This document shows positions 4,184-22,843 of a stretch of DNA of 64,000 nucleotides, piece after piece. The stretch spans positions 28,633 through 92,632 of the forward strand of contig JAEUPB010000054.1 in the NCBI GenBank assembly GCA_016789955.1. Direction: 5' to 3'. The stretch is from Rubrivivax sp. (lineage in GTDB: Bacteria > Pseudomonadota > Gammaproteobacteria > Burkholderiales > Burkholderiaceae_C). Both the position numbers and the translations under genes were made by a program. The notes below the pieces were generated by a model. The model was not told the origin of the DNA and did no database searches. It was given only the letters and a program-made list of their open reading frames with translations. Each line of letters starts with the position of its first letter. Position 1 is the stretch's first letter.

Positions 4184-4189
4184 AGTGAG

Positions 4190-4322: not shown

Positions 4323-4793
4323 TCAGCCTTCCTTCCCGCTCGACATCTCGGCGAACAGCGGCCGCGGCGCGTGCTTCAGCTCGAGGTCGACCTCGGCCCG
4401 CAGCGCTCGCCGCAGATGGGCCTCCACCTGCGCGCGGCGCTCGGGATCGGCGGTGGCCTCCGGCCCGTCGAGCCACGCGAGAACGGTTTCCAGCGCGCGG
4501 TTGCCCGCGTCGCGGCGGGCGAGCAGCTCGGCCACCGGCGTGGCGAGCGGCAGCGGATCGGCGGGCAGCGGCAGCGCCGTGAGCGGCCGGATCGCGTCCA
4601 GCGCCTGCTGCTGCGCGGCGATCTGCTCCAGCAGGAAGCCGGTGCTCCAGTCGGCGCGCACCTTGAAGGTGTTGAGCAGGTTGATGACGCCGTAGACCTG
4701 GCCGCGCGCGAACTCGTCGTCCAGGCGCGTCAGCACCTCGGTGCGCAGCGTGGCGCACATGCCGTCGATCAGGCGGGCGTACGAGTTGTTCAT
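4323..4793 (-). CDS. Small hypothetical protein, partner of the adjacent kinase-like gene
   Basis: A 156-residue, mostly helical, charged protein with no signal peptide or membrane segment. It has no motif I recognise (for example MNNSYARLIDGMCATL near the start). Its ATG overlaps the stop of the phosphotransferase gene by 4 bp, so the two are translationally coupled. In Pseudomonas putida the levulinate operon pairs the APH-fold kinase LvaA with a small required protein, LvaB. This arrangement is analogous, but sequence homology to LvaB cannot be shown here. Its tight coupling suggests it forms a complex with, or activates, the kinase. Confidence 0.82.
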   Translation of the reverse strand: MNNSYARLIDGMCATLRTEVLTRLDDEFARGQVYGVINLLNTFKVRADWSTGFLLEQIAAQQQALDAIRPLTALPLPADPLPLATPVAELLARRDAGNRALETVLAWLDGPEATADPERRAQVEAHLRRALRAEVDLELKHAPRPLFAEMSSGKEG

Positions 4794-5824
4794 GCGGTCT
4801 CGATGAGCTTGTCCATCTGACGCAGGCAGGTGGCGACCTGGCTGCCCATCGCCGGCATGCGCATGTCGTTGAAGCGGCCTTCCTCGAAGCAGCGCGCCGC
4901 CGCCATGTGCGTGGCCGCCAGCTTCAGCAGCGAGAACACCTGCCAGTAGCGCACCGACGCCATGCTCACCTCGATGCCCGACTGCTGCGCGTAGCGCTCG
5001 TAGAACCACTCGGGCTCGCACAGCCGGCACAGGTACGGGCTGCCGCCCTTGTACATCGGCAGGCTGGCCCAGGCGAGGTCTTCGTGCGGGTCGCCCAGGT
5101 GCACGAGTTCCCAGTCGAGGATGGCGGTGATGCGCCCGCCCGACTCGAGGAAGTTGCCGGTGCGGTAGTCGCCGTGCACGACCGTGACCCGCGGCGCCAC
5201 CGGTCGGTGCTGCGCGAGCCAGCGCAGGCCCCATTCGGCCAGCGGATAGGGGCGCATCGCCCAGCGCTCGATCAGCCGCTGCCACACGGCGACGGTGCGC
5301 TCCGCGGCGTTCTCGGGCGTGAGGTCGCCGGCCATCGCGGCGATCGGCTGCGGCCGCCAGTCGAGTCGGTGCAGCGCGGCCAGCGCGTCGATGAACTGCG
5401 CGCCGAGCTGCCGGCGGTAGCCCTCCTCCAGCGGCGGCTCGGTGGCCGAGACCCAGGGCACCACGGCGTGGCCCGCCACCTTCTCGCAGAACAGGAACGG
5501 CGCGCCGAGGATCGCGGGGTCGTCGCTGTGCCAGCCGGCGCGCGGCACCGGCACCTCGCTGCCCTCGAACGAGCGCATCGCCAGCACCTGAGGCAACGCG
5601 CTGTACGGAGCGAAGAGTCCGTCGTCGGGGCCCAGCCTCAGGATCAGTTCGCGCGGGTCGCAACCTTCGCCGTCGAGCCCGGACACCGGCACCGCGTAGG
5701 TCACCCACGAGAAGCCCACCGGAAAGCGGCGGATCTCGCCGACCGTGACCGCACGGCCGGTCTGCGCCTGCAGGTACCGCTGCACCCGCGCGGCGAGCGC
5801 GGCCTCGTCGCCCGGTGGATTCAT
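4790..5824 (-). CDS. Phosphotransferase family protein (APH/ACAD10-like kinase)
   Basis: A 344-residue aminoglycoside-phosphotransferase-fold kinase. The catalytic loop is VVHGDYRTGNFL and the metal-binding motif is ILDWELVHLGDPHEDLAW. Related enzymes (the kinase domain of ACAD10/11 and LvaA) phosphorylate hydroxyacyl-CoAs so that the phosphate can be eliminated to an enoyl-CoA. Here it sits with a small partner gene, an SDR and an acyl-CoA dehydrogenase on the same strand, which supports that role over antibiotic resistance. ATG at 5824 lies 37 bp after the SDR stop. Confidence 0.88.
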   Translation of the reverse strand: MNPPGDEAALAARVQRYLQAQTGRAVTVGEIRRFPVGFSWVTYAVPVSGLDGEGCDPRELILRLGPDDGLFAPYSALPQVLAMRSFEGSEVPVPRAGWHSDDPAILGAPFLFCEKVAGHAVVPWVSATEPPLEEGYRRQLGAQFIDALAALHRLDWRPQPIAAMAGDLTPENAAERTVAVWQRLIERWAMRPYPLAEWGLRWLAQHRPVAPRVTVVHGDYRTGNFLESGGRITAILDWELVHLGDPHEDLAWASLPMYKGGSPYLCRLCEPEWFYERYAQQSGIEVSMASVRYWQVFSLLKLAATHMAAARCFEEGRFNDMRMPAMGSQVATCLRQMDKLIETA

Positions 5825-5861
5825 GCGACCGACGACGTGAGTCCGGAGCGGGCGCGCGGCG

Positions 5862-6734
5862 TCATCGACCGTGCTTCAGCAGGTCCGGCTGCACCGCGCG
5901 GTGGAAGCCCTCGTAGGGCACGTTGTTGCGGCTGGGCTGCAGCTTCCAGGTGGTCGGTCGGTGGTTGGGTGCGCCCCCGTCCACACGCACGCAGCTGCCG
6001 GTGACGTAGGCCGCCGCCGGCGACAGCAGATAGACGATCGCCGATCCGATCTCGGCCTCGGTGCCGTAGCGCTGCAGCGGCACCTGCGGCGGGAACTCGA
6101 GGATCTTGGCCTTGGCCTCGGGGGTGTAGGTGTCGAAGCCGCTGGAGGCGATGCCGCTGGGCGCCACGCAGTTCACGCGCACGCCGCTGGCAGCCCACTC
6201 GCAGGCGGCGGTCTCGGTGAGCGTGAGCATGCCGCCGCGCGCGGCGCCGCTGTGCGCGTAGTCGGGCCAGCCGTGCCAGATGTCGGCGATCACGTTGACG
6301 ATGGCGCCGCCGTGCTGCTCCATGCAGCGGTTGAACACCTCGCGCATGAAGATGAAGCCGCCGGTCAGGTTGCTGCGCACCACCGCCTCGAAGCCCTTGG
6401 TGCTGATGGTCTTCATCGGCGCGCGGTACTGGCCGCCGGCGTTGTTGACGAGCGCGTCGATGCGGCCGCGCTCGCGCAGCACCGTCTCGATGACCTCGAT
6501 GACCTGCGCTTCCTCGCGGATGTCGGCCACGTGCAGGCTGGCGCTGCCGCCGTCCTCCGCGATCTCGGCCTGCACCGCCTGCAGCTTCTCGATCTTGCGG
6601 CCCACCAGCGCGAGGTGCGCGCCCAGCGAGGCCAGCTCGTGCGCCGTGCAGCGGCCGATGCCGCTGCCGCCGCCGGTGACGATGATGGTCTGGCCGTCGA
6701 AGAGGCCGGCGCGGTAGATCGATCGGTAGCCCAT
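5862..6734 (-). CDS. SDR family oxidoreductase, peroxisomal trans-2-enoyl-CoA reductase (PECR)-like
   Basis: A 290-residue Rossmann-fold enzyme. The cofactor motif TGGGSGIG is near residue 20 and VNNAGGQYRAP near 96. Where classical SDRs have YxxxK it reads YAHSGAARGGMLTLTETA, starting at Tyr159, so the catalytic Lys is not in the usual place. The HSGAARAG-type string and NNAGGQ are hallmarks of mammalian PECR, which reduces trans-2-enoyl-CoA with NADPH. It may therefore reduce or interconvert an enoyl-CoA in the pathway. It lies 18 bp after the acyl-CoA dehydrogenase gene and is probably co-transcribed with it and with the kinase pair downstream. Confidence 0.88.
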   Translation of the reverse strand: MGYRSIYRAGLFDGQTIIVTGGGSGIGRCTAHELASLGAHLALVGRKIEKLQAVQAEIAEDGGSASLHVADIREEAQVIEVIETVLRERGRIDALVNNAGGQYRAPMKTISTKGFEAVVRSNLTGGFIFMREVFNRCMEQHGGAIVNVIADIWHGWPDYAHSGAARGGMLTLTETAACEWAASGVRVNCVAPSGIASSGFDTYTPEAKAKILEFPPQVPLQRYGTEAEIGSAIVYLLSPAAAYVTGSCVRVDGGAPNHRPTTWKLQPSRNNVPYEGFHRAVQPDLLKHGR

Positions 6735-6752
6735 GGTGGTACGACCCTCGCT

Positions 6753-7901
6753 TCAGTACTGGACGGCCGTGCGGCCGATGCGCTCGCGCGCGATGATCAG
6801 CTTCATCACCGCGGCCGTGCCGTCGCCGATCTCCAGGCCCATCACGTCGCGCAGGCGCTGCTGGTGCGGCAGGTCCTTGCTCCAGCCGTAGTGGCCGAAG
6901 GTCAGCAGGCACTGGTGGATCACGTCCACCGCGTGCTTGGGGCCCATCCACTTGCACATCGCCGCTTCCTTCGTGTGCGGCAGGCCCGCATCGCGCAGCG
7001 CCAGCGTGTGCAGGCACAGCTGCCGGATGGCCTCGATCTGCGACTCGCCCTCGGCCAGCGGGAAGGTCACGCCCTGGAACTGGCCGATCGGGCGGCCGAA
7101 GGCCTCGCGTTCCTTCGTGTAGGCCCAGGCCTCGTCGAGGCTCGCCTGCGCGGCGCCGCAGGCCTGCAGCCCGATCAGCGCGCGGCTGTAGTCGAAGCCC
7201 TGCATCACCTGCGTGAACCCCTGGCCCTCGTCGCCCAGCAGGTGGTCGGCGGGCACGCGCACGTCGTCGAGGAAGACCTGGCCGCGGCCGATCACCGCGC
7301 TGCCGAGGTCGTCGAAGGCCAGGGTCTGGATGCCGGGCGTGCCGGCCGGCACGAAGAACGCGCTGACCCCCTTCGCGCCCTGCTCCGGCGTGCCGGTGCG
7401 CGCGAAGATCAGGTAGGCGTCGGCGCGGTCGGCGAAGGTGATGCTGGTCTTCTCGCCGTTGAGCACCCAGTGGTCGCCGTCACGGCGCGCCTTCAATTGC
7501 AGGTGGCTCGCGTCAGAGCCGCCGCGCGGCTCGGTGAGACAGATCGCGATCACCGCCTCGCCGCGCACCATCCTCGGCACCCAGGCATCCCGCACCGCGG
7601 GCCGGGCGTGGCGGACCAGGATCGCGCCGTTGAGCGAGATGCCCACCGGCACCGCACTGACGTTGAAGTCCCCGTACGCCAGCGCCTCGACGACGAGGCC
7701 GGTGGTGACGCCGTCGAGCCCCATGCCGCCGTGGGCCTCGGGCAGGTCCATGCCGAGGAAGCCGAGGCGGCCCATTTCGGCCACCAGGGCGCGGTCGAGG
7801 ATGCCGTCGCGGTCTCGCTGCTGATAGCCGGGCAGCAGCACCTCGCGGGCGTAGCGGCGCGCGGATTCGAGCAGGGCCTTCTGGTCGTCGGAGAGAACCA
7901 T
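6753..7901 (-). CDS. Acyl-CoA dehydrogenase (alicyclic type, lacking the canonical Glu)
   Basis: A flavin-dependent acyl-CoA dehydrogenase of 382 aa. The FAD/substrate motif ICLTEPRGGSDAS is near residue 125, followed by LNGEKTSITFADRADAYLIF. The C-terminal segment is RDVMGLEIGDGTAAVMKLII. At the position where most family members carry the catalytic Glu (GGTxEIMR) there is Ala, in GTAAVMK. Dehydrogenases of the cyclohexanecarboxyl-CoA group are known to use a different acidic residue, and Asp78 (AYGDFN) is one candidate. That fits the BadH/BadI homologues nearby. ATG at 7901 follows operator site C, so this gene likely heads the unit running to 4323. Confidence 0.9.
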   Translation of the reverse strand: MVLSDDQKALLESARRYAREVLLPGYQQRDRDGILDRALVAEMGRLGFLGMDLPEAHGGMGLDGVTTGLVVEALAYGDFNVSAVPVGISLNGAILVRHARPAVRDAWVPRMVRGEAVIAICLTEPRGGSDASHLQLKARRDGDHWVLNGEKTSITFADRADAYLIFARTGTPEQGAKGVSAFFVPAGTPGIQTLAFDDLGSAVIGRGQVFLDDVRVPADHLLGDEGQGFTQVMQGFDYSRALIGLQACGAAQASLDEAWAYTKEREAFGRPIGQFQGVTFPLAEGESQIEAIRQLCLHTLALRDAGLPHTKEAAMCKWMGPKHAVDVIHQCLLTFGHYGWSKDLPHQQRLRDVMGLEIGDGTAAVMKLIIARERIGRTAVQY

Positions 7902-7936
7902 CGTCTCGCACCGGTGGGATCGTGATCGATGATACC

Positions 7937-7950
7937 TTGCACTAGCGTAC
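7937..7950. promoter_or_regulatory. Operator-like motif, site C
   Basis: TTGCACTAGCGTAC lies between the acyl-CoA dehydrogenase start (7901) and the stop of the upstream ligase (7958). Its core CACTAGCGTA is shared with site D, which suggests the dehydrogenase-SDR-kinase genes have their own regulated promoter. Confidence 0.55.
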
Positions 7951-7957
7951 GATCTGC

Positions 7958-9616
7958 CTAGGGACTTTCCGCGTGGTCCCCCGGCCCGTCCCCGCCGCCT
8001 GCGGCGATCTCGCGCAGCCGGAACTTCTGCACCTTGCCGCTGGGCGTGCGCGGCAGCTCGTCGAGGATCTCCACGCGCTCGGGCCAGTACTGCTTGGCGA
8101 CCCTGTTTCCGGCCATCCAGGCCTGCAGGTCGGCGAGCGTGAAGGTGGCACCCGGCCGCAGCACGACGAAGGCGCAGCCGCGTTCGCCCAGCCGCGCATC
8201 GGGGTAGCCCACCAGCGAGGCGGCCGCCACCGCGGGATGCTGGTAGAGCAGCGCCTCGATCTCGACCACCGGCACGTTCTCGCCGCCGCGGATCAACACG
8301 TCCTTGGTGCGCCCGTTGATGCGGATGTAGCCCTCGTCATCGGCATAGGCCAGGTCGCCGGTGTCGAACCAGCCGTCGGCATCGAAGGTCGGGATCTCCG
8401 GGCGCTTGTAGTAGCCCATGAACATCTGCGCGCCGCGCACCAGCAGCCGCCCCGTCTGCCCCACCGGCAGCGGCCGCCCGTCGGCGTCGACGATGCGGAT
8501 GTCCACGCCTTCGAGCGAGCGGCCGTCGGAGCTGGCCGACTTCTGCAGCGCGCGCTCGGGCTCGGTCAGCGTGCTGGACAGGCTTTCGGTCATGCCCCAC
8601 AGCGAGCAGACCTTCAGCTCGAGTTCGCGCGCCGCGCGCTCGATCAGCACCGGCGGGATCGGCGCGCCGCCGCACAGGAAGTTGCGCAGCCTCGACGGGC
8701 GCGGCGCGCCGGCGGCCACCGTCTCGCAGATGTCGTTGAGAAAGGGCGTGGAGGCCGCGGTGAAGGTCACGCCCTCGTCGGCCATGATCTGCACGCCTCG
8801 TCGCCCTTCCCACACGTCCTGCAGCACCACCGTGCCGCCCAGGCTCAGCCCCAGCAGCATCACGGCTGCGTAGCCGGTCATGTGGCCCAGCGGGGAACAG
8901 GCCAGCATCACGTCGGAGCCGTCGAGGTGGAAGCGGCCGGCCAGCGAGCGGTTGCAGGCGAGCAGCGTGTGGGTGCTGTGCATCACGCCTTTCGGCGAGC
9001 CGGTGGTGCCCGACGTGAACATCACCACCGCCATCGCGTCGGGTGCCAGCAGCGGGCGCGCCGGTGTCGCCTCCACGCGCGTGCTGCCGGAGAGCAGCAT
9101 GCGGTCGATTCCGTCGGCGCCGTCACCGTCGACCACGATCACGTGCTGCAGCCGCGGCAGGTCCTTCTGCAGGGCCCGGGCCATCGCCGCGTGGTCGTGA
9201 CCGCGGAACATGCGGGGCACCACCAGCACCTTGGACTCCGCGAACCCGAGCATGTAGCCGAGTTCGCGTTCGCGGAAGATCGGCATCAGCGGGTTGACGA
9301 CCGCACCGATGCGGTTGGCCGCCAACGACACGATGACGAACTCGCACCAGTTGGGCAATTGCACCGCGACGATGTCGCCAGGCTGCACGCCCAGGCCCTG
9401 CAGCGCAGCCGCGGCGCGCGCCACCGAGTCGCCCAGCCCGGCATAGGTCAGGCGGCGGACCTCCGTGCGGTCGCTGCGGTAGCCGACGATGGCGGCCTTG
9501 TCCGGCGTATTCTCGACCGCCCGCTGCAGCAGCGCGTCGTAGACAGTGTCGGTCCAGTGGCCTTCGGCGCGCATGCGACGGGCATGGGCCGCGGCATCGA
9601 AGCGGGCCGTGCTCAT
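7958..9616 (-). CDS. AMP-dependent acyl-CoA ligase, cyclohexanecarboxylate-CoA ligase (AliA)-like
   Basis: A 552-residue ANL-family ligase that adenylates a carboxylic acid and transfers it to CoA. The P-loop motif is MFTSGTTGSPKGVM. The A5 motif is SLWGMTESLSST, the A7 motif is DGWFDTGDLAYADDEGYIRI, the hinge is GRTKDVLIRGGENV, and the catalytic Lys is in TPSGKVQKFRLRE. The N-terminal FDAAAHARRMRAEGHWTD resembles AliA-type ligases, and the BadH/BadI/MarR context supports an alicyclic acid substrate. ATG at 9616 was preferred over 9649 because of the GGAG at about 9 nt. It is downstream of the MarR gene, separated by a large palindromic repeat. Confidence 0.9.
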   Translation of the reverse strand: MSTARFDAAAHARRMRAEGHWTDTVYDALLQRAVENTPDKAAIVGYRSDRTEVRRLTYAGLGDSVARAAAALQGLGVQPGDIVAVQLPNWCEFVIVSLAANRIGAVVNPLMPIFRERELGYMLGFAESKVLVVPRMFRGHDHAAMARALQKDLPRLQHVIVVDGDGADGIDRMLLSGSTRVEATPARPLLAPDAMAVVMFTSGTTGSPKGVMHSTHTLLACNRSLAGRFHLDGSDVMLACSPLGHMTGYAAVMLLGLSLGGTVVLQDVWEGRRGVQIMADEGVTFTAASTPFLNDICETVAAGAPRPSRLRNFLCGGAPIPPVLIERAARELELKVCSLWGMTESLSSTLTEPERALQKSASSDGRSLEGVDIRIVDADGRPLPVGQTGRLLVRGAQMFMGYYKRPEIPTFDADGWFDTGDLAYADDEGYIRINGRTKDVLIRGGENVPVVEIEALLYQHPAVAAASLVGYPDARLGERGCAFVVLRPGATFTLADLQAWMAGNRVAKQYWPERVEILDELPRTPSGKVQKFRLREIAAGGGDGPGDHAESP

Positions 9617-9650
9617 CGCAGGCGTCTCCGGTCTCCCCGGGATCTTCACA

Positions 9651-9767
9651 AGGTGCGAAAGAACCGTAGCGAGCGGCCCGAGGTCGGTTCGAGCAGCGCA
9701 GCCGTACTGACGTACGGCGAGCAGCGCAGGGCCGAGATCGGGTCGCGCAGTAGGTTCTCTCGCACCT
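9651..9767. repeat. 117 bp palindromic element between marR and the ligase gene
   Basis: Outer arms AGGTGCGAAAGAACC (9651-9665) and GGTTCTCTCGCACCT (9753-9767) are inverted with one mismatch. Inner arms GCCGTAC (9701-9707) and GTACGGC (9712-9718) flank a 4 nt loop. CGAGCAGCGCAG occurs on both sides of the centre. It fills almost the whole 153 bp gap. It could be a dispersed repeat, an attenuating or terminating structure, or an mRNA-processing site. No open frame is evident. Confidence 0.75.
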
Positions 9768-9769
9768 GG

Positions 9770-10246
9770 TCAGACCTCGTCGCCCTGCAGGTATTCGAGC
9801 AGGTTGCGTTTCATCGCATCGAGCGTCAGCGCCGCGCTCTCGAGCTTGTCGTCGGCCAGCCCTTCGAGGATCTTGCCGTTCATCCGGTGGCTGACCTTGC
9901 GCATCTTGGTGATCAGCTGCTTGCTCTTGGGCTCCAGGAAGACGCGGTTGACGCGCCGGTCGGCGGCGTCGGCCACGCGCCTCACCAGGCCGCTCTTCTC
10001 CAGCCGGTCGATCAGGCCGCCCACGGCCACCTTGCCCAGGTCGAGCTCCTCGGCGAGCTGGCTCTGCGTCATGCCGTCCTCGCGCGAGAGGTAGGCCAGC
10101 ACCCACCACTGCGAGCGCGTCACGTTCAGCGGCTTCAGGCAGCGGTCGAACGCGCTGCGGCGCAGCCGCGACACATCGTGGATCAGGAAGCCGAGCCGCA
10201 GCTCCCAGTCGGTGCTGTGCGGGTCGGTGGCGGCGGATGCCGGCAT
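9770..10246 (-). CDS. MarR family transcriptional regulator (BadR-like position)
   Basis: A 158-residue winged-helix regulator. The DNA-recognition region reads TQSQLAEELDLGKVAVGGLI, followed by the wing VRRVADAADRRVNRVFLEP. ATG at 10246 was chosen because GAGGGA precedes it by about 7 nt; the in-frame ATG at 10288 lacks a ribosome site. In Rhodopseudomonas palustris a MarR protein, BadR, represses the cyclohexanecarboxylate genes aliBA-badHIK, and its ligand is a CoA-thioester intermediate. The same family in the same gene context makes a BadR-like role likely. A divergent gap to the gene at 10479 carries operator-like sites D and E. Confidence 0.88.
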   Translation of the reverse strand: MPASAATDPHSTDWELRLGFLIHDVSRLRRSAFDRCLKPLNVTRSQWWVLAYLSREDGMTQSQLAEELDLGKVAVGGLIDRLEKSGLVRRVADAADRRVNRVFLEPKSKQLITKMRKVSHRMNGKILEGLADDKLESAALTLDAMKRNLLEYLQGDEV

Positions 10247-10292
10247 GTCGCAGTCCCTCTGCTGTCGAGGGTCGCCGTGGCGACCCATTACT

Positions 10293-10306
10293 GTAAGCCT
10301 GCGTAT
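10293..10306. promoter_or_regulatory. Weak operator-like motif, site E
   Basis: GTAAGCCTGCGTAT, 47 bp upstream of the marR start, matches the cluster consensus only partly (GCGTA half and flanking GTA). If real it would allow autoregulation. TATATTG beside it could be part of a -10 element. Confidence 0.3.
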
Positions 10307-10342
10307 ATTGTGCGGCCATACGGGTGCCGGTGACGTCGGCTC

Positions 10343-10396: not shown

Positions 10397-10407
10397 GGTC
10401 CGAGATC

Positions 10408-10421: not shown

Positions 10422-10478
10422 GATGCGGCACAGCATCAAGCTCACCGGCCCGACGGCACTCCGGCACTCGCTCCCCCC

Positions 10479-16196: not shown

Positions 16197-16200
16197 GCCG

Positions 16201-17451
16201 GTGGTGCCCGTGACGCTGCGGCTGGTCGACACGCTGGCGCCCGGGCTGCGCGTCTGGGTGCCGACGCTGTCGAACGAGTCGCAGCGCCTGGCCGATGAGC
16301 TGCGCGCCGACCCCGAGCGGGCGCGCGGTGTCACCTTCGCCGGCGTGCAGTTCCCCGGCATCGATCGCTTCGACTACCTCGCCGTCCATCCCGAGGCCCG
16401 GGCGCTCGGCTGGTTCATGACGCCGGCGCTTCGCCGCGGGCTCGCGGAAGGCCGCGCCGAGCTGCGGGCGCAGGACTACCTCGGCATCGTGCGTGAGTTG
16501 CGCGAGGGAGAACCGTTCGACGTGGCCTGCGCGCAGCTGACGCCGCCCGATGCCGATGGTTGGTGCGCGCCGGGGTTGTCGGCGGACTTCCTGCCGTTCG
16601 TGTGGCCGCGCGCGAAGCGCCGCATCGCGCACCTGAACCCGCGCCTGCCGCGCCTGGCCAGCAGCTTCCGTGTACACGTGTCGGAGATCGACATCGCCGT
16701 GGAGGCCGATGCGCCGCTGCTCGACCATGCCGAGACCCGCGGTGGTGCGCTCGAGGCTCGCATCGGGGCGCATGCCGCGACGCTGGTGCGCGACGGCGAC
16801 ACGCTGCAGTTCGGCATCGGCAGCGTGCCGCTGTCGCTGGCGCAGTCGCTCGCGTCGCACCGCCGCCTGCGGTTCCACGGCGGCATGCTGCCGGCCGCGT
16901 TCCGCACGCTGTGGGACGCCGGCGCGATCGACCGCGACGCGCCGGTGATCACCGGGCTGGTGCTGGGCGACGCGGCGCTGCGCGAGCATGCCGCCACACT
17001 GCCGGGCCTGCGGCTGGAGCCGGTGACGGTGACGCACGATCCCGCGCACCTGGCGACGCTCCCGCGCTTCGTCGCGATCAACGGTGCCGTCGAGGTCGAC
17101 CTCTTTGGACAGGTGAACGCCGAGCGCACCAGCGGCGCGATCCTGGCCGGGGCCGGTGGCCTGCCGGCGGTCGCGCAGGGTGCGCTGGCGTCGCCCGGCG
17201 GCCGGCTCGTCATCGTGCTGCCGGCCACGGCCAAGGGCGGCAGCGTGTCGCGCATCGTGCCGGCGCTGGGCGCGCAGTCGCTCGTGACGCTGCCGCGGCA
17301 ACTGGCCGACGCGATCGTCACCGAGCATGGCGTGGCCGAGCTGCGCGGGCGCTCGCTCGACGCCCGCGCGCAGGCGCTGATCGAAATCGCGGCACCCGGG
17401 CACCGCGCGGCGCTCGCCGCCGCGTGGGACGAGATCCTGCGCCACGCATGA
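16201..17451 (+). CDS. Acetyl-CoA hydrolase/4-hydroxybutyrate CoA-transferase family protein
   Basis: A 416-residue class I CoA-transferase-like protein. Motifs include LQFGIGSVPLSLAQSLASH, FHGGMLPAAFRTL, and the catalytic Glu region AINGAVEVDLFGQVNAERTS. The C-terminal IVTEHGVAELRGRSLDARAQ is a signature of the AcH/4HBT group. It would move CoA between the pathway acid and an acyl-CoA, saving ATP, or release CoA. Three in-frame GTG starts exist (16201, 16204, 16210) and none has a strong ribosome site. The gene begins 5 bp after the previous stop and its own stop overlaps the next ATG. Confidence 0.88.
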   Translation: MVPVTLRLVDTLAPGLRVWVPTLSNESQRLADELRADPERARGVTFAGVQFPGIDRFDYLAVHPEARALGWFMTPALRRGLAEGRAELRAQDYLGIVRELREGEPFDVACAQLTPPDADGWCAPGLSADFLPFVWPRAKRRIAHLNPRLPRLASSFRVHVSEIDIAVEADAPLLDHAETRGGALEARIGAHAATLVRDGDTLQFGIGSVPLSLAQSLASHRRLRFHGGMLPAAFRTLWDAGAIDRDAPVITGLVLGDAALREHAATLPGLRLEPVTVTHDPAHLATLPRFVAINGAVEVDLFGQVNAERTSGAILAGAGGLPAVAQGALASPGGRLVIVLPATAKGGSVSRIVPALGAQSLVTLPRQLADAIVTEHGVAELRGRSLDARAQALIEIAAPGHRAALAAAWDEILRHA

Positions 17452-17963
17452 CGGTCATCCCCGAGGGCTTCGTGCCCGTGAAGCTGGGCAGCACCTTCGC
17501 CACCCACAGCGCCACGCTGCACGCGCGCTGGCACGGCGGCAAGCTGCAGGTCGGCTTCATCGTCGAGGCGCACCAGGCCAACCCCGGCGGCCACTGCCAC
17601 GGCGGCATGCTGGGGCTGTTCGCCGACATCGTGCTGTCCAGCGCGGCGCAGTACCAGACCGACATCCCGCGGCAGTTCCTGCCCACCATTAGCCTGCAGC
17701 TCGACTACATGAACGGCGCGCCGCTGGGCCGCTGGGTGCAGGGCGAGGCCGAGATCCTGCAGGTCACGCGCAACCTCGTCTTCAGCCAGGGCCTGATCAC
17801 ATGCGACGCCAAGGCCGTGGCCCGCGCCAGCGGCGTGTTCCGCCGCGGGCCGCTGCTGCCCGACACCGAGAGCGACCATCGGCTGCGGTTGCCGGGCATG
17901 CCGGACATGTCCCGAGTTGCGGACGACAGTCGATTCGATATAGTACACATGCGTATCGTGTAG
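17448..17963 (+). CDS. PaaI-type hotdog-fold thioesterase
   Basis: A 171-residue hotdog protein with the motif NPGGHCHGGMLGLFADIVLS and LQLDYMNGAPLGRWVQG. Such enzymes hydrolyse acyl-CoA esters and in catabolic operons rescue CoA from dead-end thioesters. It is coupled to the CoA-transferase by an ATGA overlap. Its last codons overlap operator-like site F, so the next gene probably has its own promoter embedded in this reading frame. The low-hydrophobicity tail after LLPDTESDH is atypical and may be a consequence of that overlap. Confidence 0.86.
   Translation: MTVIPEGFVPVKLGSTFATHSATLHARWHGGKLQVGFIVEAHQANPGGHCHGGMLGLFADIVLSSAAQYQTDIPRQFLPTISLQLDYMNGAPLGRWVQGEAEILQVTRNLVFSQGLITCDAKAVARASGVFRRGPLLPDTESDHRLRLPGMPDMSRVADDSRFDIVHMRIV
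17943..17956. promoter_or_regulatory. Operator-like motif, site F
   Basis: GTACACATGCGTAT sits at the end of the thioesterase gene, 87 bp before the next start at 18043. It matches the GTACAC and GCGTA parts of the consensus; CCGTACGCTGCGG follows at 17966-17978 as a possible second half. An internal promoter for the acyl-CoA dehydrogenase genes is the likely purpose. Confidence 0.45.
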
Positions 17964-18042
17964 TTCCGTACGCTGCGGTTGCGGCACGTGGGTCGATCGC
18001 CGGCAACCCCGTGCAGGCGCATCGTGCGCCAGGAGTGGATGG

Positions 18043-19209
18043 ATGGATTTCTCGGTCAGCGAAGACCACCGCGCGATCCGCGACGGCGTCGCCGCCGTGG
18101 TGCGGCGTTTCGACGACGAGTACTGGCTGACGCGCGACGACGACGGCGAGTTCCCGCGCGAGTTCCACCGCGCGATGGCCGAGGCCGGCTGGCTGGGCAT
18201 CACGATGCCGGCGGAGTACGGTGGCGCAGGCCTGGGCGTGACCGAGGCGGCGATCATGCTGCACGAGGTCGCCAGCCACGGCGGCGGCATGGCGGCGGCC
18301 AGCACGGTGCACATCAACCTGTTCGGCCCGCACCCGATCGTGGTCTTCGGCACGCCCGAGCAGAAGCAGCGCTGGATCCCTCGCCTGGTCGCCGGCGAGG
18401 ACCAGTGCGCGTTCGGCTTCACCGAGCCCGACGCGGGGCTGAACACCACCGCGATCAAGACCTTTGCGCAGAAGGTGCCGGGCGGCTACCTGGTGCACGG
18501 GCAGAAGGTCTGGACCAGCACGGCGCAGGTGGCCAGCAAGATCATGCTGCTGACCCGCACCACGAAGCTCGAGGACTGCGCGCGGCCGACCGACGGCATC
18601 ACGATCTTCTACACCGACCTCGACCGCAGCCGGATCGAGGTGCGCCGCATCCCCAAGATGGGCCGCAAGGCGGTGGACAGCAACGCGATCTTCATCGACG
18701 GCTTGTTCATCCCCGACGGCGACCGCATCGGCGAGGAAGGCAAGGGCTTCTCGTACATCCTGCACAGCCTGAACCCCGAGCGGCTGCTCGTGGCAGCCGA
18801 GGCCATCGCGATCGGCCAGGACGCGCTGCGCCGCGCCACGCGGTACGCCCGCGAGCGCATCGTCTTCGACCGGCCGATCGGCCAGAACCAGGGCATCCAG
18901 CACCCGCTGGCCGAGCGCTGGATGGCGCTGGAGGCGGCGTGGACGATGGTGATGAAGGGCGCCTGGCTCTACGACCAGCACCAGCCCTGCGGGGCCGAGG
19001 CCAACACCGCGAAGTTCCTGGGTGCGCGCGCGGGCCACGACGCCTGCATGCAGGCCGTGCTCACCCACGGCGGCTTCGGCTACGCCAAGGAGTACCACGT
19101 GGAGCGGCTGCTGCGCGAGGTGACGATCACGCGCATCGCGCCCGTCACCGAGCAGCTGATCCTGTCGTTCATCGCCGAGAAGGTGCTCGACCTTCCGAAG
19201 TCCTACTGA
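18043..19209 (+). CDS. Acyl-CoA dehydrogenase
   Basis: A 388-residue flavoprotein that introduces a double bond into an acyl-CoA and passes electrons to ETF. Motifs are FGFTEPDAGLNTTAIKTFAQ and VWTSTAQVASKIMLLTRTT. HGGFGYAKEYHVERLLREV leads into RIAPVTEQLILSFIAEKVL. The Glu in PVTEQL is in the position of the catalytic base. A GGAGTGGATGG context precedes the ATG. It is immediately followed by another acyl-CoA dehydrogenase 9 bp downstream. The two could oxidise successive intermediates (for example cyclohexanecarboxyl-CoA, then the opened pimelyl chain) or form a heteromer. Confidence 0.91.
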   Translation: MDFSVSEDHRAIRDGVAAVVRRFDDEYWLTRDDDGEFPREFHRAMAEAGWLGITMPAEYGGAGLGVTEAAIMLHEVASHGGGMAAASTVHINLFGPHPIVVFGTPEQKQRWIPRLVAGEDQCAFGFTEPDAGLNTTAIKTFAQKVPGGYLVHGQKVWTSTAQVASKIMLLTRTTKLEDCARPTDGITIFYTDLDRSRIEVRRIPKMGRKAVDSNAIFIDGLFIPDGDRIGEEGKGFSYILHSLNPERLLVAAEAIAIGQDALRRATRYARERIVFDRPIGQNQGIQHPLAERWMALEAAWTMVMKGAWLYDQHQPCGAEANTAKFLGARAGHDACMQAVLTHGGFGYAKEYHVERLLREVTITRIAPVTEQLILSFIAEKVLDLPKSY

Positions 19210-19217
19210 AGGCCGCC

Positions 19218-20378
19218 ATGTTCAAGCGAGAACTGTTCAACGAGGACCACGAGGCGTTCCGCGACACCGTCCGCCGCTTCGTGGAGCAGGAGATCGCTCC
19301 GCACCACGCCCGATGGGAGGAGAGCGGCGTGGTGCCGCGCGAGCTGTGGCTGAAGGCCGGTGCCGCCGGCCTGCTGTGCTGCACGGTGCCCGAGGTCTAC
19401 GGGGGCGCCGCGGCCGACTACCTGTTCGACGTGGTCGTGTTCGAGGAGATGGCCCGCTCCGGCTACACCGGGCCGGGCTTCATGATCCATTGCGACCTGG
19501 TCGCCACCTACATCGCCAGCTTCGGCAGCGAGCAGCAGAAGCGCACCTGGCTGCCGAAGATGGTGCGCGGCGAGGCGATCGGCTCGCTGGGCATGACCGA
19601 GCCGCACGCCGGCTCCGACCTGAAGGCCATCCGCACGAAGGCGGTGCGGGACGGCGACGACTTCGTCATCAGCGGCCAGAAGGTCTTCATCTCCAACGGG
19701 CAGCTGTGCGACGTGATCGTGCTGGCCACCAAGACCGACAGCGCGGCCGGCGCCAAGGGCGTGACGCTGTTCCTGGTGGACACCCGGCTGCCGGGATTCC
19801 GCCGCGGCAAGAACCTGCACAAGCTCGGTCTGAAGGCGCAGGACACCTCGGAGCTGTTCTTCGACGAGATGCGCATCCCCTCCAGCGCGATGCTCGGCGA
19901 GGAAGGCCGCGGCTTCGAGCTGATGATGACCAAGCTGGCCCAGGAACGCCTGGCCCAGGCGATCCGCTCGGCGGTGGTGGCCGAGACGGTGATCGACTGG
20001 ACGGTGGAGTACACCGCCAACCGCAAGGCCTTCGGCAAGACCATCGGCGACTTCCAGAACACGCAGTTCAAGCTCGCCGAGCTGAAGACCGAGGCGACGA
20101 TCGGCCGCGTGTTCACCGACCAGTGCATCGCCAAGTTCATGCGCGGCGAGCTCGACGCGGTGGACGCCGCGATGGCCAAGATGTGGCTGTCCAACCTGCA
20201 CTGCAAGGTGGTCGACGAGTGCCTGCAGCTGTTCGGCGGCTGGGGCTACATGTGGGAGTACCCGATCGCGCGCGCCTATGCCGATGCCCGCATCGTCAAG
20301 ATCGCCGGTGGCTCCATCGAGGTGATGAAGCACATCATCGGCCGGCAGATGTTCGCCAACGCCGGCGGAGGCAAGTGA
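19218..20378 (+). CDS. Acyl-CoA dehydrogenase, long-chain-type
   Basis: A 386-residue acyl-CoA dehydrogenase with all family marks: LGMTEPHAGSDLKAIRTKAV, FISNGQLCDVIVLATKTD, and LQLFGGWGYMWEYPIAR. The C-terminal segment ARIVKIAGGSIEVMKHIIG has Glu at the usual catalytic position, unlike the dehydrogenase at 6753. ATG at 19218 was chosen because it aligns with family N-termini (FKRELFNEDHEAFRDTVRRF); a long in-frame extension upstream lies antisense or out of frame within the preceding gene. It forms a tight unit with its neighbours, 1 bp before the SDR. Confidence 0.92.
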   Translation: MFKRELFNEDHEAFRDTVRRFVEQEIAPHHARWEESGVVPRELWLKAGAAGLLCCTVPEVYGGAAADYLFDVVVFEEMARSGYTGPGFMIHCDLVATYIASFGSEQQKRTWLPKMVRGEAIGSLGMTEPHAGSDLKAIRTKAVRDGDDFVISGQKVFISNGQLCDVIVLATKTDSAAGAKGVTLFLVDTRLPGFRRGKNLHKLGLKAQDTSELFFDEMRIPSSAMLGEEGRGFELMMTKLAQERLAQAIRSAVVAETVIDWTVEYTANRKAFGKTIGDFQNTQFKLAELKTEATIGRVFTDQCIAKFMRGELDAVDAAMAKMWLSNLHCKVVDECLQLFGGWGYMWEYPIARAYADARIVKIAGGSIEVMKHIIGRQMFANAGGGK

Positions 20379-20379
20379 C

Positions 20380-21282
20380 ATGGGTCCATCCACCTTCCGC
20401 GCCGACGTGCTGGCGGGCAAGCGCATCCTGATCACTGGCGGCGGCACTGGCCTCGGCAAGGAGCTGGCGCGCCACTTCGTCGCGCACGGTGCCGCGGTGC
20501 ACATCTGCGGCCGCCGCGAGGCCGTGCTGCAGGCGGCCGTCGAGGAGCTGCGCCAGGCCGCGCAGCACGGCGGCACCGTGGAACACCACGTCTGCGACGT
20601 GCGCGACGCCGAGCAGATCGAGGCGATGGTCGAGGGCATCTGGGCCGGCGGGCCGCTGACCGGCCTCGTCAACAACGCCGCGGCGAACTTCATCTCGCCC
20701 TCGGTGGACATCAGCCCGCGCGGGTTCGCGGCGGTGCGCAGCACGGTGATGGACGGTGCGCTGTTCGCCACGCTGGCCTGCGGCCGGCGCTGGATCCGCG
20801 ACGGGTTGCCCGGCAGCGTGGTCAGCATGCTCGTCACCTGGGTGTGGACCGGCTCGGCCTACGTGCTGCCGAGCACGATGGCCAAGACCGCGGTGCACGC
20901 GATGACGATGTCGCTGGCGGTCGAATGGGGCCGGCACGGCATCCGCGTGAACGCCGTCGCGCCGGGCCCGTTCCCCACCGAGAGCGCGTGGGAGAAGCTC
21001 GCGCCGATCCCCAAGGCCAACGTCGGCGCGGCCTCGGCCGACGAGGTGCCGATGGGCCGCTTCGGCCGCATGCACGAACTCTGCAACCTGCTGACCTTCC
21101 TGCAGGCCGACGGCTGCGAGTACCTCACCGGCCAGAACATCGCGATCGACGGCGGCCACCACCTGGCGGCGCCCTCCACCTTCGCGGCGCTGGGCAAGCT
21201 GACGCCCGACGACTGGGCCGAGGCCAAGGCGCTGGTGCGCGGCAAGGCTGAGCAGGAGAAGGCGCAGCGGTCGACGGGCTGA
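20380..21282 (+). CDS. SDR family oxidoreductase, 2,4-dienoyl-CoA reductase (DECR)-like
   Basis: A 300-residue SDR. The cofactor motif TGGGTGLG is near residue 20 and GLVNNAAANFISPSVDISP near 105. The segment TGSAYVLPSTMAKTAVHAMT replaces the classical YxxxK spacing, as in mammalian DECR1 (NNAAGNFISP and PSASAKAG). DECR-type enzymes reduce conjugated dienoyl-CoA with NADPH, a step needed when a ring or chain carries an extra double bond. Its presence suggests unsaturated alicyclic or terpenoid substrates. It begins 1 bp after the upstream stop. Confidence 0.88.
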   Translation: MGPSTFRADVLAGKRILITGGGTGLGKELARHFVAHGAAVHICGRREAVLQAAVEELRQAAQHGGTVEHHVCDVRDAEQIEAMVEGIWAGGPLTGLVNNAAANFISPSVDISPRGFAAVRSTVMDGALFATLACGRRWIRDGLPGSVVSMLVTWVWTGSAYVLPSTMAKTAVHAMTMSLAVEWGRHGIRVNAVAPGPFPTESAWEKLAPIPKANVGAASADEVPMGRFGRMHELCNLLTFLQADGCEYLTGQNIAIDGGHHLAAPSTFAALGKLTPDDWAEAKALVRGKAEQEKAQRSTG

Positions 21283-21292
21283 CGCGCCGCCC

Positions 21293-22843
21293 ATGCACGA
21301 CGACGTGCAGGACCTGCGTCGCCATGCGGCGGCGGATCCGGAACGCCGGGCGATCGTCTGCGGGACGCGCAGCCTGTCGTACGGCGAACTCGAAGCCCGG
21401 TCGAACCGGCTCGCGGCCGCGTGGCGGCGCCTGGGGCTGGTGCGGGGCGACCACGTCGCCACGCTGATGGGCAACGTGCCCGAGGCGCTGGCCGCGGCCT
21501 GGGCAGCATGGCGCTGCGGCGTGTACCTCACGCCCGTGCCCACGACGCTGGCCGCGCCGGAGACTGCGGCGATGGTGGCGGACTGCGAGGCGCGCCTGGT
21601 ACTGGCCGACGGTGGCAGCGCGGCGGCCGCGGCGCTGGCCGCGCAGGTCCCCCGGCTCGTCATGAACGGGGTGCGGTGGCGATCGATCGGCGGCGAGATC
21701 CACGGCTACGAGCCGATCGAGCTGGCTCTCGCCACCGCGTCGCCGGAACCAGCCGCCGACGAGCCGCCGGGCGCGCTGATGATGTACACGTCGGGCACCA
21801 CCGGCGCGCCGAAGGGCGTGATCCGCCCGCTGCTGCCGGCGGACTGGCGCGGCACGCCGCCGTTCGCAGGCGACCTGATCGCGCTGTTCGGCGTCGGCGG
21901 CCCCGATGTGCGCTACCTCTCGACCGCGCCGCTGTACCACGCAGCGCCGCTGCGCACCGCGCTGGCCGTCACCGCCGGCGGCGGCACCGTGCACGTGATG
22001 GACCGCTTCGACGCCGAAGCCGCGCTCGACGTGCTCGAGCGCGAGGCCATCACGCACAGCCAGTGGGTGCCGGCGATGTTCCAGCGGCTGCTGGCGCTGC
22101 CCGACGAGCGTCGCCGCGCCCTCCGGGCACCGGCGCACCGTACCGCCATCCACGGCGCCGCGCCCTGCCCCATCGCAGTGAAGCGCGCGATGATCGACTG
22201 GTGGGGCCCGATCCTGCTCGAGTACTACTCGGGCAGCGAAGGCGTCGGCCTGACGCTGATCGACTCCCGCGAGGCGCTGGCGCACCCCGGCTCCGTGGGT
22301 CGCGCGCGCAAGGGCCGGCTGCACGTCGTCGACGACACCGGGCGCGAACGGGCGAGCGGCGAGACCGGCCTGGTGTGCTTCTCGGGCGTGGCGCCGTTCG
22401 AATACCACCGCGCGCCCGAGAAGACCGCGGCGCGCACCTTGCACGCCGCCGACGGCACGCGGCTGCAGACCTTTGGCGACCTCGGCCACGTCGACGCCGA
22501 AGGCTGGCTCTTCCTCACCGACCGCCTCGACGACATGATCATCTCCGGCGGCGTGAACGTGTATCCGCAGGAGATCGAAGCGGTGATCGGCGCCGTGCCG
22601 GGCGTGTGGGAGTGCGCCGTGGTCGGCGTCGAGGACGGGGCGTTCGGCGAGCGCCCGATCGCCTTCATCGTGCCGCGGCGCGGAGCGCCGATCGAGCCGT
22701 TGCGCGCCGCGCTGGTCGACGCCATCGAACGCAACCTCGGCCGCATCAGGCGGCCGGACGCCATCCACGTCATCGACGAACTGCCGCGGTCGCCGACCGG
22801 CAAGCTGCTGCGCCGGAAGCTGCGGCCTCCCGCGGCCGGGTGA
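21293..22843 (+). CDS. AMP-dependent acyl-CoA synthetase
   Basis: A 516-residue ANL ligase, second in the cluster. The P-loop motif is MMYTSGTTGAPKGVI, A5 is LEYYSGSEGVGLTLI, the A7/A8 region is LQTFGDLGHVDAEGWLFLTD then DDMIISGGVNVYPQEIEAVI, and the catalytic Lys is in SPTGKLLRRKLR. It likely activates a second carboxylate substrate or an intermediate acid. The C-terminal 80 residues are highly similar to a truncated ligase remnant at 55456-55710. It ends the long rightward operon, 14 bp from a convergent gene. Confidence 0.92.
   Translation: MHDDVQDLRRHAAADPERRAIVCGTRSLSYGELEARSNRLAAAWRRLGLVRGDHVATLMGNVPEALAAAWAAWRCGVYLTPVPTTLAAPETAAMVADCEARLVLADGGSAAAAALAAQVPRLVMNGVRWRSIGGEIHGYEPIELALATASPEPAADEPPGALMMYTSGTTGAPKGVIRPLLPADWRGTPPFAGDLIALFGVGGPDVRYLSTAPLYHAAPLRTALAVTAGGGTVHVMDRFDAEAALDVLEREAITHSQWVPAMFQRLLALPDERRRALRAPAHRTAIHGAAPCPIAVKRAMIDWWGPILLEYYSGSEGVGLTLIDSREALAHPGSVGRARKGRLHVVDDTGRERASGETGLVCFSGVAPFEYHRAPEKTAARTLHAADGTRLQTFGDLGHVDAEGWLFLTDRLDDMIISGGVNVYPQEIEAVIGAVPGVWECAVVGVEDGAFGERPIAFIVPRRGAPIEPLRAALVDAIERNLGRIRRPDAIHVIDELPRSPTGKLLRRKLRPPAAG

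What the first reader, a model, noticed from the sequence alone, without database searches (positions are those of the whole stretch)
4323..22843. An alicyclic-acid (cyclohexanecarboxylate-type) degradation cluster with extra modules
Homologues of BadH, BadI, an AliA-like ligase, a MarR regulator and an atypical acyl-CoA dehydrogenase occur together, as in R. palustris. This cluster adds a thiolase/HMGCS-DUF35 pair, PECR- and DECR-like reductases, a CoA-transferase, an APH-like kinase and a second ligase. Benzoyl-CoA reductase genes are not present. The combination suggests substrates such as substituted, unsaturated or terpenoid cyclohexane acids, perhaps a pathway not yet described.
Basis: partly seen in the sequence, partly recalled or inferred. 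Interest (0 to 1): 0.8.

Follow-up and report, generated by a model that had tools for sequence, protein, structure and literature searches.

The report
Terpenoid cyclohexane-acid ring-cleavage gene cluster
This is a bacterial gene cluster that most likely opens and breaks down plant-terpene-derived six-membered-ring acids; it matches a known terpene-degradation island in another bacterium more closely than the simple cyclohexane-acid pathway it was first taken for, and it points to unproven later steps that can be tested.

Summary
In detail: 17 genes lie at 4323-22843 with the domains described. They are not the R. palustris-type cyclohexanecarboxylate (bad-ali) pathway. The BadH, BadI, AliA and AliB homologues hit those NCBIfam models best but miss all four cut-offs. 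Genuine bad-ali proteins of Aromatoleum toluclasticum, and a second BadH/BadI pair elsewhere in this genome, pass. [quoted passage not shown] Reciprocal best hits there include MrcB-F, an acyl-CoA dehydrogenase (85%), the HMGCS-like/DUF35 protein, its thiolase and the CoA-transferase. Published mrcC and mrcF mutants do not grow on limonene, an mrcD mutant at most weakly. The operon recurs in Burkholderiales (Variovorax, Paraburkholderia, Rubrivivax). New here: an ali-like entry pair of a distinct subfamily, a conserved operator unlike BadR's, and a consistent but unproven lower pathway for beta-branched products: LCAD/IVD-type dehydrogenases, a MaoC-CitE pair moved to another contig beside an acetoacetyl-CoA-synthetase-like gene, and a PhlABC-like thiolase complex whose HMGCS domain has lost its catalytic residues. 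Verdict: new variant of a known kind; substrate inferred, not shown.

The parts
538..1347 (-). g2, LivG-type ATPase of a branched-chain-amino-acid-type ABC transporter; probable uptake system of the cluster
   Evidence: PF00005/PF12399; homologue over 60% identity in 11 of 80 loci, to the left of AliA/MarR there; rest of the transporter on the contig upstream
2202..2990 (-). g4, enoyl-CoA hydratase, 49% to one on the C. defragrans contig
   Evidence: PF00378; reciprocal best hit c39
3035..3048 (.). operator-like palindrome GTACACTACCGTAC between divergent g4 and g5
   Evidence: one of 7 places in the 5.26-Mb genome that match RTACRCWNNNDTAY
3074..4183 (+). g5, Rv3169-family protein
   Evidence: NF053593 314 bits, cut-off 150; weak likeness to C. 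defragrans c7
4323..4793 (-). g6, unknown, 156 aa, paired with g7
   Evidence: no Pfam or NCBIfam hit; 63% homologue in L079
4790..5824 (-). g7, APH-like kinase
   Evidence: PF01636; 36-37% to c29, 33% to c61 of the C. defragrans contig
5862..6734 (-). g8, SDR, enoyl/dienoyl-CoA-reductase-like
   Evidence: reciprocal best hit 65% with c58 of the C. defragrans contig
6753..7901 (-). g9, AliB-like ring acyl-CoA dehydrogenase of a separate subfamily
   Evidence: TIGR03207 546.5 bits, under cut-off 575.35; 71-80% to copies in L034, L052, L079, L100, 56-59% to bad-ali AliB
7958..9616 (-). g10, AliA-like acid:CoA ligase of a separate subfamily
   Evidence: TIGR03208 702.3, under cut-off 792.3; 61-80% in 11 Burkholderiales-type loci, 49-53% to bad-ali AliA
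9770..10246 (-). g11, MarR-type regulator
   Evidence: PF12802; 51% reciprocal best hit with C. defragrans c12; 31-33% to the regulators of bad-ali loci
10288..10312 (-). operator site upstream of g11
   Evidence: motif from MarR upstream regions, this site included in the training
10479..11915 (+). g12, HMGCS-like domain fused to DUF35; catalytic residues lost
   Evidence: predicted fold nearest PhlA and 6ESQ_I
11915..13129 (+). g13, thiolase with complete SCP2/archaeal-type active-site motifs
   Evidence: PRK06157 over cut-off; 6ESQ_A E 1.5e-47; motifs in 28 of 28 sequences
13157..13927 (+). g14, MrcD/BadH-like 2-hydroxy ring acyl-CoA dehydrogenase
   Evidence: TIGR03206 321.9, under cut-off 431.2; 72% to MrcD
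13958..14752 (+). g15, MrcE/BadI-like ring-opening hydrolase
   Evidence: TIGR03210 394.6, under cut-off 467.6; 80% to MrcE; tree
14769..16196 (+). g16, MrcF-like ring hydratase, a shortened FadB/FadJ alpha subunit
   Evidence: 41-43% to MrcF; both hydratase Glu in 59 of 59 sequences; predicted fold
16201..17451 (+). g17, acetyl-CoA hydrolase/4-hydroxybutyrate-type CoA-transferase
   Evidence: 46% reciprocal best hit c4
17448..17963 (+). g18, hotdog thioesterase
   Evidence: PF03061
17938..17962 (-). operator site before the g19-g22 operon
   Evidence: second best hit of the MarR-upstream motif in the window, not in its training set
18043..19209 (+). g19, acyl-CoA dehydrogenase with a Glu at the IVD/LCAD base position
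   Evidence: 85% reciprocal best hit c45
19218..20378 (+). g20, MrcB-like, LCAD-type acyl-CoA dehydrogenase
   Evidence: 8w0t E 6.3e-121; 81% to MrcB
20380..21282 (+). g21, MrcC-like 2,4-dienoyl-CoA reductase
   Evidence: PRK07677 best family, under its cut-off; 62% to MrcC
21293..22843 (+). g22, FadD-type acyl-CoA ligase
   Evidence: PF00501, NF038341 best family, under its cut-off; over 60% homologue in 7 of 80 loci

Best explanation
A catabolic cluster, probably MarR-controlled, for 4-substituted, probably terpenoid (p-menthane type, perillate-like) cyclohexane or cyclohexene carboxylic acids. A Liv-type transporter takes up the acid; the AliA-like ligase makes the CoA ester; the AliB-like dehydrogenase, where the ring is saturated, makes the ring-1-ene ester; g16 (MrcF-like) hydrates it, g14 (MrcD-like) oxidises it, g15 (MrcE-like) hydrolyses C1-C2 to an isopropenyl- or isopropyl-pimelyl-CoA. 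One round of beta-oxidation then leaves a 3-substituted glutaryl-CoA, branched at the beta carbon. I infer that the IVD/LCAD-type dehydrogenases (g19/g20) and the dienoyl-CoA reductase (g21) work on it, that a MaoC-CitE pair (here on contig C98) hydrates it to a tertiary alcohol and splits it into acetyl-CoA and an acetoacetate-like acid, that the CoA-transferase g17 or an acetoacetyl-CoA synthetase reactivates this acid, and that the thiolase g13, held by the inactive HMGCS-DUF35 protein g12, cleaves it. Shown here: family membership, subfamily, reciprocal best hits to an island with published mutant and proteome data, operon and operator conservation. Inferred: substrate, reaction order, regulator-operator pairing, the whole lower pathway.
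For: Reciprocal best hits, contig against contig, of 13 of the 17 genes at 4323-22843 (g7, g8, g10-g17, g19-g21; the weakest are g10 29% and g7 37%) plus g4 on the C. defragrans monoterpene contig; g12-g13-g17 adjacent there as c6-c5-c4. Published for those genes (my match by order, annotation and length): MrcB, MrcD, MrcE, MrcF and the g12, g13, g19 homologues are marked ++ (LC peptides only in the alpha-phellandrene fraction; PMC4109377 Table 1); mrcF and mrcC insertion mutants do not grow on limonene, an mrcD mutant weakly on solid and not in liquid medium (PMC5876002). BadI tree: window and MrcE in one 66-row clade, support 100/100, apart from five bad-ali BadI. Cut-off split. Among 100 genomes (own included), all 5 with an mrcE-type gene (my limit 66% identity) have g12, 2 of 95 others do (P 2.8e-7 if genomes were independent). 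CitE within 300 bp before g19 in 23 of 32 loci including C. defragrans; MaoC-CitE at 85%/76% beside an acetoacetyl-CoA-synthetase-like gene in this genome. Operator. Base position in g19, g20.
Against: No substrate has been tested. The limonene dehydrogenase CtmB has no match at 1e-20 in this genome nor in 14 others of 21 searched; five more have only 26-28% matches. So the terpene entry of C. defragrans is missing. C. defragrans has no ali-like pair on that contig (g9 best hit 37%; g10's 29% hit is the GeoC-like ligase). g12 also occurs in genomes whose found BadI lies outside the mrc clade (L097, L101), and is not found in three whose BadI lies inside it (L060, L061, L092). g16 is only 41-43% to MrcF. 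The homologues of CitE, g8 and the MarR gene were LC '0' (unchanged) and that of the CoA-transferase was not detected in the published proteome. The genome is a 79.6% complete draft.
Confidence: 0.68

Rival explanations
1. It is an ordinary bad-ali cluster for unsubstituted cyclohexanecarboxylate, as in R. palustris and Aromatoleum sp. CIB, with extra beta-oxidation genes.
For: Best NCBIfam families are AliA, AliB, BadH, BadI. Sanz and Diaz list Variovorax and Paraburkholderia among bad-ali carriers and say most Burkholderiales clusters lack badK (PMC9795900, section read).
Against: All four proteins miss the cut-offs that bad-ali proteins of A. toluclasticum pass, as do BadH and BadI of this genome's contig C114. 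10 of 18 genomes with an mrc-type copy (74% or more) also have a second BadI at 59-64% identity; of the four of these second copies whose 15-kb surroundings I fetched, three (L173, L175, L176) sit with AliA and AliB and one (L174) does not. No BadR operator CAAN4TTG in the cluster.
Confidence: 0.1
2. The substrate is a non-monoterpene 4-alkyl or polycyclic ring acid (naphthenic acid, resin-acid remnant), with the same enzymes.
For: Carriers of the BadI relatives include soil, freshwater and contaminant-site genomes as I read their titles; the AliB-like enzyme suits saturated rings; a Rieske dioxygenase pair lies further upstream on the contig.
Against: The nearest characterised island is terpene-induced and needed for growth on terpenes. 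The dienoyl-CoA reductase, LCAD/IVD-type dehydrogenases and CitE fit an isopropenyl branch, but would also fit other branches.
Confidence: 0.18
3. g12-g13 work as a reversed HMG-CoA synthase/thiolase that cleaves a 3-hydroxy-3-substituted glutaryl-CoA directly.
For: g12 and g13 match the three parts of the archaeal thiolase/HMGCS/DUF35 complex 6ESQ.
Against: At the places aligned with the Glu, Cys and His of 6ESQ (their catalytic roles are recalled) g12 and its homologues have Thr in 29 of 29, no Cys in 29 of 29 (mostly Ala) and no His in 29 of 29 (28 Pro, 1 Ser).
Confidence: 0.06

Closest known systems
mrc cluster and monoterpene island of Castellaniella defragrans (Petasch et al. 2014, PMC4109377)
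   Same: MrcB-F, the g12/g13/g17 module, g19, g8, g4, MarR and an APH-like gene as reciprocal best hits between the two contigs
   Different: No AliA/AliB-like pair on that contig and no CtmB here; there the genes lie in several blocks, MaoC-CitE is beside g19's homologue and MrcA, G, H are present; here MaoC-CitE is on another contig
bad-ali cluster of R. palustris and Aromatoleum sp. CIB (PMC9795900)
   Same: Reaction types: ligase, ring dehydrogenase, 2-hydroxy dehydrogenase, ring-opening hydrolase, MarR regulator divergent from catabolic genes
   Different: Separate subfamilies under all four cut-offs, no BadR operator, extra lower-pathway genes, hydratase of FadB/FadJ kind
PhlABC acyltransferase and archaeal thiolase/HMGCS/DUF35 complex (5M3K, 6ESQ)
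   Same: Three-part make-up: KASIII/HMGCS-like protein, DUF35, thiolase
   Different: HMGCS-like and DUF35 parts fused in one chain; HMGCS catalytic residues lost; catabolic setting
Itaconate degradation trio RipA/B/C (Ict, Ich, Ccl)
   Same: MaoC and CitE partners have RipB and RipC as best NCBIfam families
   Different: Far under those cut-offs (127.9 of 340, 154.8 of 375 bits); the CoA-transferase is nearer 4-hydroxybutyrate CoA-transferases than 3qli (taken as RipA from recall)

Membership tests
bad-ali (cyclohexanecarboxylate) cluster | BadH, BadI, AliA, AliB over the NCBIfam equivalog cut-offs | tested here: not met
   0 of 4 in the window; controls pass: 4 of 4 in A. toluclasticum, 2 of 2 tested on own contig C114 (the AliB there is cut by the contig end and was not scored)
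bad-ali (cyclohexanecarboxylate) cluster | BadR operator CAAN4TTG in the divergent promoter region | tested here: not met
   only match in the window is at 2098, inside g3; feature from PMC9795900
bad-ali (cyclohexanecarboxylate) cluster | growth on and induction by cyclohexanecarboxylate | not testable with these tools
   needs a culture
mrc (monoterpene ring cleavage) cluster | MrcB-C-D-E-F orthologues in one cluster | tested here: met
   five reciprocal best hits, 81, 62, 72, 80, 43%, between the two contigs
mrc (monoterpene ring cleavage) cluster | ring hydrolase in the MrcE clade | tested here: met
   100/100 clade of 66 of 85 rows
mrc (monoterpene ring cleavage) cluster | MrcA, MrcG, MrcH present | tested here: not met
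   no hits on the window's contig for c48, c54, c55 at 1e-8; rest of genome not searched
mrc (monoterpene ring cleavage) cluster | required for growth on monoterpenes | not testable with these tools
   known only for C. defragrans mutants
HMG-CoA synthase | catalytic Glu, Cys, His | tested here: not met
   absent in 29 of 29 (roles of the three residues recalled)
SCP2/archaeal-type thiolase (g13) | active-site Cys, HDCF, GHP motifs | tested here: met
   each in 28 of 28

The most novel reading that the evidence does not exclude
The cluster is a complete route, not described before, for saturated and unsaturated p-menthane-type acids in common soil Burkholderiales: a second, paralogous ali/bad set opens the ring, and the beta-branched C8 remnant is degraded without a biotin carboxylase by IVD/LCAD-type dehydrogenation, MaoC hydration to a tertiary alcohol, CitE retro-aldol cleavage, reactivation of the beta-keto acid and thiolysis by a thiolase carried on an inactive HMG-CoA-synthase scaffold. 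Many clusters listed as bad-ali in Burkholderiales would then be terpenoid-acid clusters.
Probability: 0.25. Interest if true: 0.7.

Novelty: new variant of a known kind. Interest (0 to 1): 0.5.

Why it matters
Cyclic monoterpenes are released in large amounts by plants, and how bacteria finish off the branched remnant after ring opening is, as far as I found, open. If right, the cluster names candidate enzymes for each step, gives a marker set (MrcE-type hydrolase, g12/g13, MaoC-CitE, a GTAC-N6-GTAC-like operator) to find terpenoid-acid degraders in metagenomes, and separates them from cyclohexanecarboxylate degraders with which they are easily confused.

Tried and rejected
BadR operator CAAN4TTG: absent from the cluster. 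A pair of GGGTTAGRCCC-like inverted repeats between g11 and g12: the first regex was wrong; corrected, with one mismatch allowed, found upstream in 2 of 28 MarR and 0 of 27 g12 loci, so dropped for the conserved GTAC-type motif. The motif matrix was trained on 15 of the 16 sites that reached 16 of 25 matches; I left out L059's poor match, and the window's own site at 10288 is in the training set. Motif counts in C. defragrans (5 hits over 14 bits in 67.6 kb) are hardly more than the overall density predicts (about 3.9), so only the position of the best hit, about 110 bp before its MarR gene, is mentioned. A test of the motif 300 bp before g19 gave 1 of 32 because MaoC-CitE lie between; the later test over the whole gap gave 19 of 20 at 12 bits (17 of 20 over 14). 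The motif was not found by L195, the MaoC-CitE locus of this genome, at 10 bits. The genome-wide pattern was written with the sites at 10293 and 17943 in view, so only the site at 3035 is independent. Reverse HMG-CoA synthase: rejected because the catalytic residues are lost. Aldolase like Sal/Ltp2: g13 has HDCF, not YDCY/YDHF (PMC12329534, passages). Limonene dehydrogenase: no CtmB match in this genome. The co-occurrence limit of 66% identity was set after seeing (nearest below: 65%, G011); three g12 matches there carry an in-frame TGA, and only 16 candidates per genome were scored. My note 3 says MaoC-CitE is in 18 of 20 relatives; the checked figure is CitE before g19 in 23 of 32 loci, MaoC found in the locus in 19 of those 23. 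MrcF is 1239 b in the paper, my frame c53 is 482 aa; not resolved. The published strain is 65Phen, the contig is from DSM 12141. The structure model of g12 is of middling confidence (pLDDT 73.2).
Full report
What is there. The cluster is divergent: g6-g11 on the minus strand, g12-g22 on the plus strand. To the left, on the same contig, lie a complete Liv-type ABC transporter, a long ligase and hydratases. The genome is a 5.26-Mb draft, 79.6% complete; its order is Burkholderiales by inference from the named loci with the same operon.

Not bad-ali. BadH-, BadI-, AliA- and AliB-like proteins hit the matching NCBIfam equivalogs best but score 321.9, 394.6, 702.3 and 546.5 bits against cut-offs 431.2, 467.6, 792.3 and 575.35. 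The C. defragrans MrcD and MrcE score alike (318.1, 389.3). Bad-ali proteins of A. toluclasticum pass all four, and a BadH/BadI pair on contig C114 of this same genome, beside a contig-end fragment of AliB, passes with 467.1 and 525.1. Of 23 genomes searched by handle, 18 hold a BadI of 74% or more to the window's; 10 of these 18 also hold a second one of 59-64% identity (a 19th, G120, has a 66% copy and two at 61%). I fetched 15 kb around six copies of 59-63%: four (L173, L175, L176, L178) sit with AliA and AliB, two (L174, L177) do not; L178 is the Thiolinea genome, which showed no closer copy.

It is mrc-like. A scan of 84,980 species' genomes with BadI kept the best 80 of 251 relatives. 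At set thresholds g12 homologues lie in 27 of these 80 loci, g13 in 26, g14 in 60, g16 in 57, g17 in 43, g19 in 32, g20 in 34, g21 in 33 (the others fail the threshold or run off the locus). The order MarR | g12 g13 g14 g15 g16 g17 (g18) g19 g20 g21 recurs in Variovorax, Xenophilus, Rubrivivax, Hydrogenophaga and others; Paraburkholderia has g19-g22 inverted. On the 67.6-kb C. defragrans contig, reciprocal best hits, contig against contig, were found for g4, g7, g8, g10-g17 and g19-g21. The BadI tree of 85 rows puts window and MrcE in a 66-row clade with 100/100 support; the five bad-ali copies fall outside. In the published island table, the homologues I assign to g12, g13, g19, g20 and g14-g16 are marked ++ (LC peptides only in the alpha-phellandrene fraction), as are those of MaoC and the acetoacetyl-CoA synthetase; those of g8, MarR and CitE were unchanged, MrcC was raised 2.3-fold on 2D gels, and the CoA-transferase was not detected (PMC4109377 Table 1). 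Insertions in mrcF, mrcC and CDM25297 stop growth on limonene; an mrcD insertion leaves weak growth on solid and none in liquid medium (PMC5876002 table). CDM25297 is probably c7 by length (1023 bp), a weak relative of g5's family. I read sections and passages, not whole papers.

Where g12 occurs. Of 28 genomes searched through loci, 20 have a strong g12 homologue (E below 1e-150), 3 a weaker one and 5 none; the five are those of L060, L061, L092, L102 and L106. The thiolase is next to it in 23 of 23 mapped hits. In 100 relatives (own included) taken regardless of either gene, mrcE-type copies (66% or more) are in 5 and g12 in 7, including all 5 (P 2.8e-7 if genomes were independent, which they are not). 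Against a strict link, the genomes of L097 and L101 have g12 but their found BadI is outside the clade, and L060, L061 and L092 have a BadI inside it but no g12 found.

What g12 and g13 do. g12's first half is predicted to fold like PhlA and the archaeal HMG-CoA synthase of 6ESQ; its DUF35 half keeps four zinc-type cysteines in 29 of 29 sequences. At the synthase's Glu, Cys and His places it has Thr (29 of 29), mostly Ala and never Cys, and Pro (28 of 29; one Ser) (alignment, counts). PhlA has Gly at the Cys place in the printed alignment. g13 keeps Cys, HDCF and GHP in 28 of 28. I therefore read g12 as scaffold and g13 as the enzyme; passages of PMC12329534 describe DUF35 domains holding such complexes together.

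The branch problem. From the structure, cleaving C1-C2 of a 4-substituted 2-oxocyclohexanecarboxyl-CoA puts the substituent on carbon 5 from the thioester (the paper writes 4-isopropenylpimelyl-CoA). One beta-oxidation round gives a 3-substituted glutaryl-CoA, blocked at the beta carbon. The cluster offers what this needs. g20 is LCAD-like (E 6.3e-121). g19 (33 of 33) and g20 (35 of 35) have a Glu at the IVD/LCAD base position and none at the MCAD position (33 of 33 and 33 of 33 readable, two gapped; the roles are recalled). A CitE-like lyase lies within 300 bp before g19 in 23 of 32 loci, with a MaoC hydratase gene in the locus in 19 of these 23; both are nearest to itaconate RipC and RipB, under cut-off. 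In this genome the pair is on C98 (85% and 76%), beside a 41% relative of the island gene annotated acetoacetyl-CoA synthetase. Dehydrogenation, hydration, retro-aldol cleavage, reactivation and thiolysis would follow. This is inference.

Regulation. Upstream of the mrc-type MarR gene, 16 of 23 sequences (window included) match a 25-base motif around GTACGCATCATTAC in at least 16 places (random 260-bp pieces: 99th percentile 15). A matrix from 15 of those sites finds a site between g17/g18 and g19 in 19 of 20 loci at 12 bits, 17 of 20 over 14. In the window it marks 10288 and 17938, and more weakly 1345. A 14-base pattern derived from it matches 7 places (8 matches) in the genome, against 5 matches of the reversed control; 3 of the 7 places lie in this cluster, at 3035, 10293 and 17943. 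No site was found by L195, the MaoC-CitE locus.

Entry. The AliA/AliB-like proteins form a subfamily by identity (61-80% within, 49-59% to bad-ali); no tree was made of them. A saturated-ring substrate would need AliB; perillate would not. The limonene dehydrogenase CtmB is not found here, so the cell probably takes up ready-made acids or uses another oxidation.

g16's predicted model (pLDDT 91.8) matches FadB/FadJ-type alpha subunits best; it has 475 residues against about 720, with both hydratase Glu in 59 of 59 sequences.

Print check. Searches 'Castellaniella defragrans/perillate/ring', 'cyclohexanecarboxyl-CoA/badI/aliA' (21), 'monoterpene/mrc/perillyl-CoA' (32), 'thiolase/DUF35/HMG-CoA synthase/monoterpene' (62), 'badKHI/monoterpene/Aromatoleum' (63), 'monoterpene ring cleavage/isopropenylpimelyl/...' (73) and 'cyclohexanecarboxylate/Variovorax/...' (74) listed no paper whose title or abstract describes this combined cluster; only the four papers named in this report were opened. 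Sanz and Diaz mention extra badKHI clusters without aliAB in two Aromatoleum strains, suggested for monoterpenes by Weiten et al. 2021, which I did not see. Subscription papers are mostly not held.

Noticed in passing
window 13958-14752 (g15): The ring hydrolase is 88-90% to L031 and L035 but 72-76% to L071, L086, L089 and L091, whose BadH (89-91%), thiolase (85-90%) and g19 (93-95%) are nearest to the window's: looks like single-gene replacement inside a conserved operon (only the BadI tree was built).
   Followed up: partly
own genome C98:36386-37728 (L195): MaoC-CitE pair, usually inside the operon, lies on another contig beside an acetoacetyl-CoA-synthetase-like gene.
   Followed up: yes
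own genome C111:50004 and 50077: Two identical ATACACATCTGTAT sites 73 bp apart before a gene that looks TetR-like by eye, near thiolase- and hydratase-like genes.
   Followed up: no
own genome C28:189936-192248: Two HGD-D (2-hydroxyglutaryl-CoA dehydratase type) domains in one 830-aa frame.
   Followed up: no
window 24473-35309: Xylan-utilisation set: GH67, GH3, GH10, GH43 and oxidoreductases.
   Followed up: no
L009:5983-10630 (own contig C97 upstream): Rieske ring-hydroxylating oxygenase alpha and beta, a glyoxalase-fold protein and a GMC oxidoreductase.
   Followed up: no
L177 (genome of L092, Bradyrhizobium macuxiense): g19 and g20 homologues at 85% and 77% and the SDR at 70% beside a BadH/BadI pair outside the mrc clade and not with the bad-ali rows.
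   Followed up: no
window 3074-5824 and C. defragrans contig 28292-30819: An APH-like kinase gene, a gene for a small unknown protein and a third gene (Rv3169 family here; only a short, weak match to it there) stand together in both, though the small proteins show no detectable similarity.
   Followed up: partly
PMC5876002 table of C. defragrans mutants: Insertions in a LivH-type permease gene also impair growth on monoterpenes; the window cluster has a Liv-type transporter beside it. Whether the two transporters correspond was not tested.
   Followed up: no
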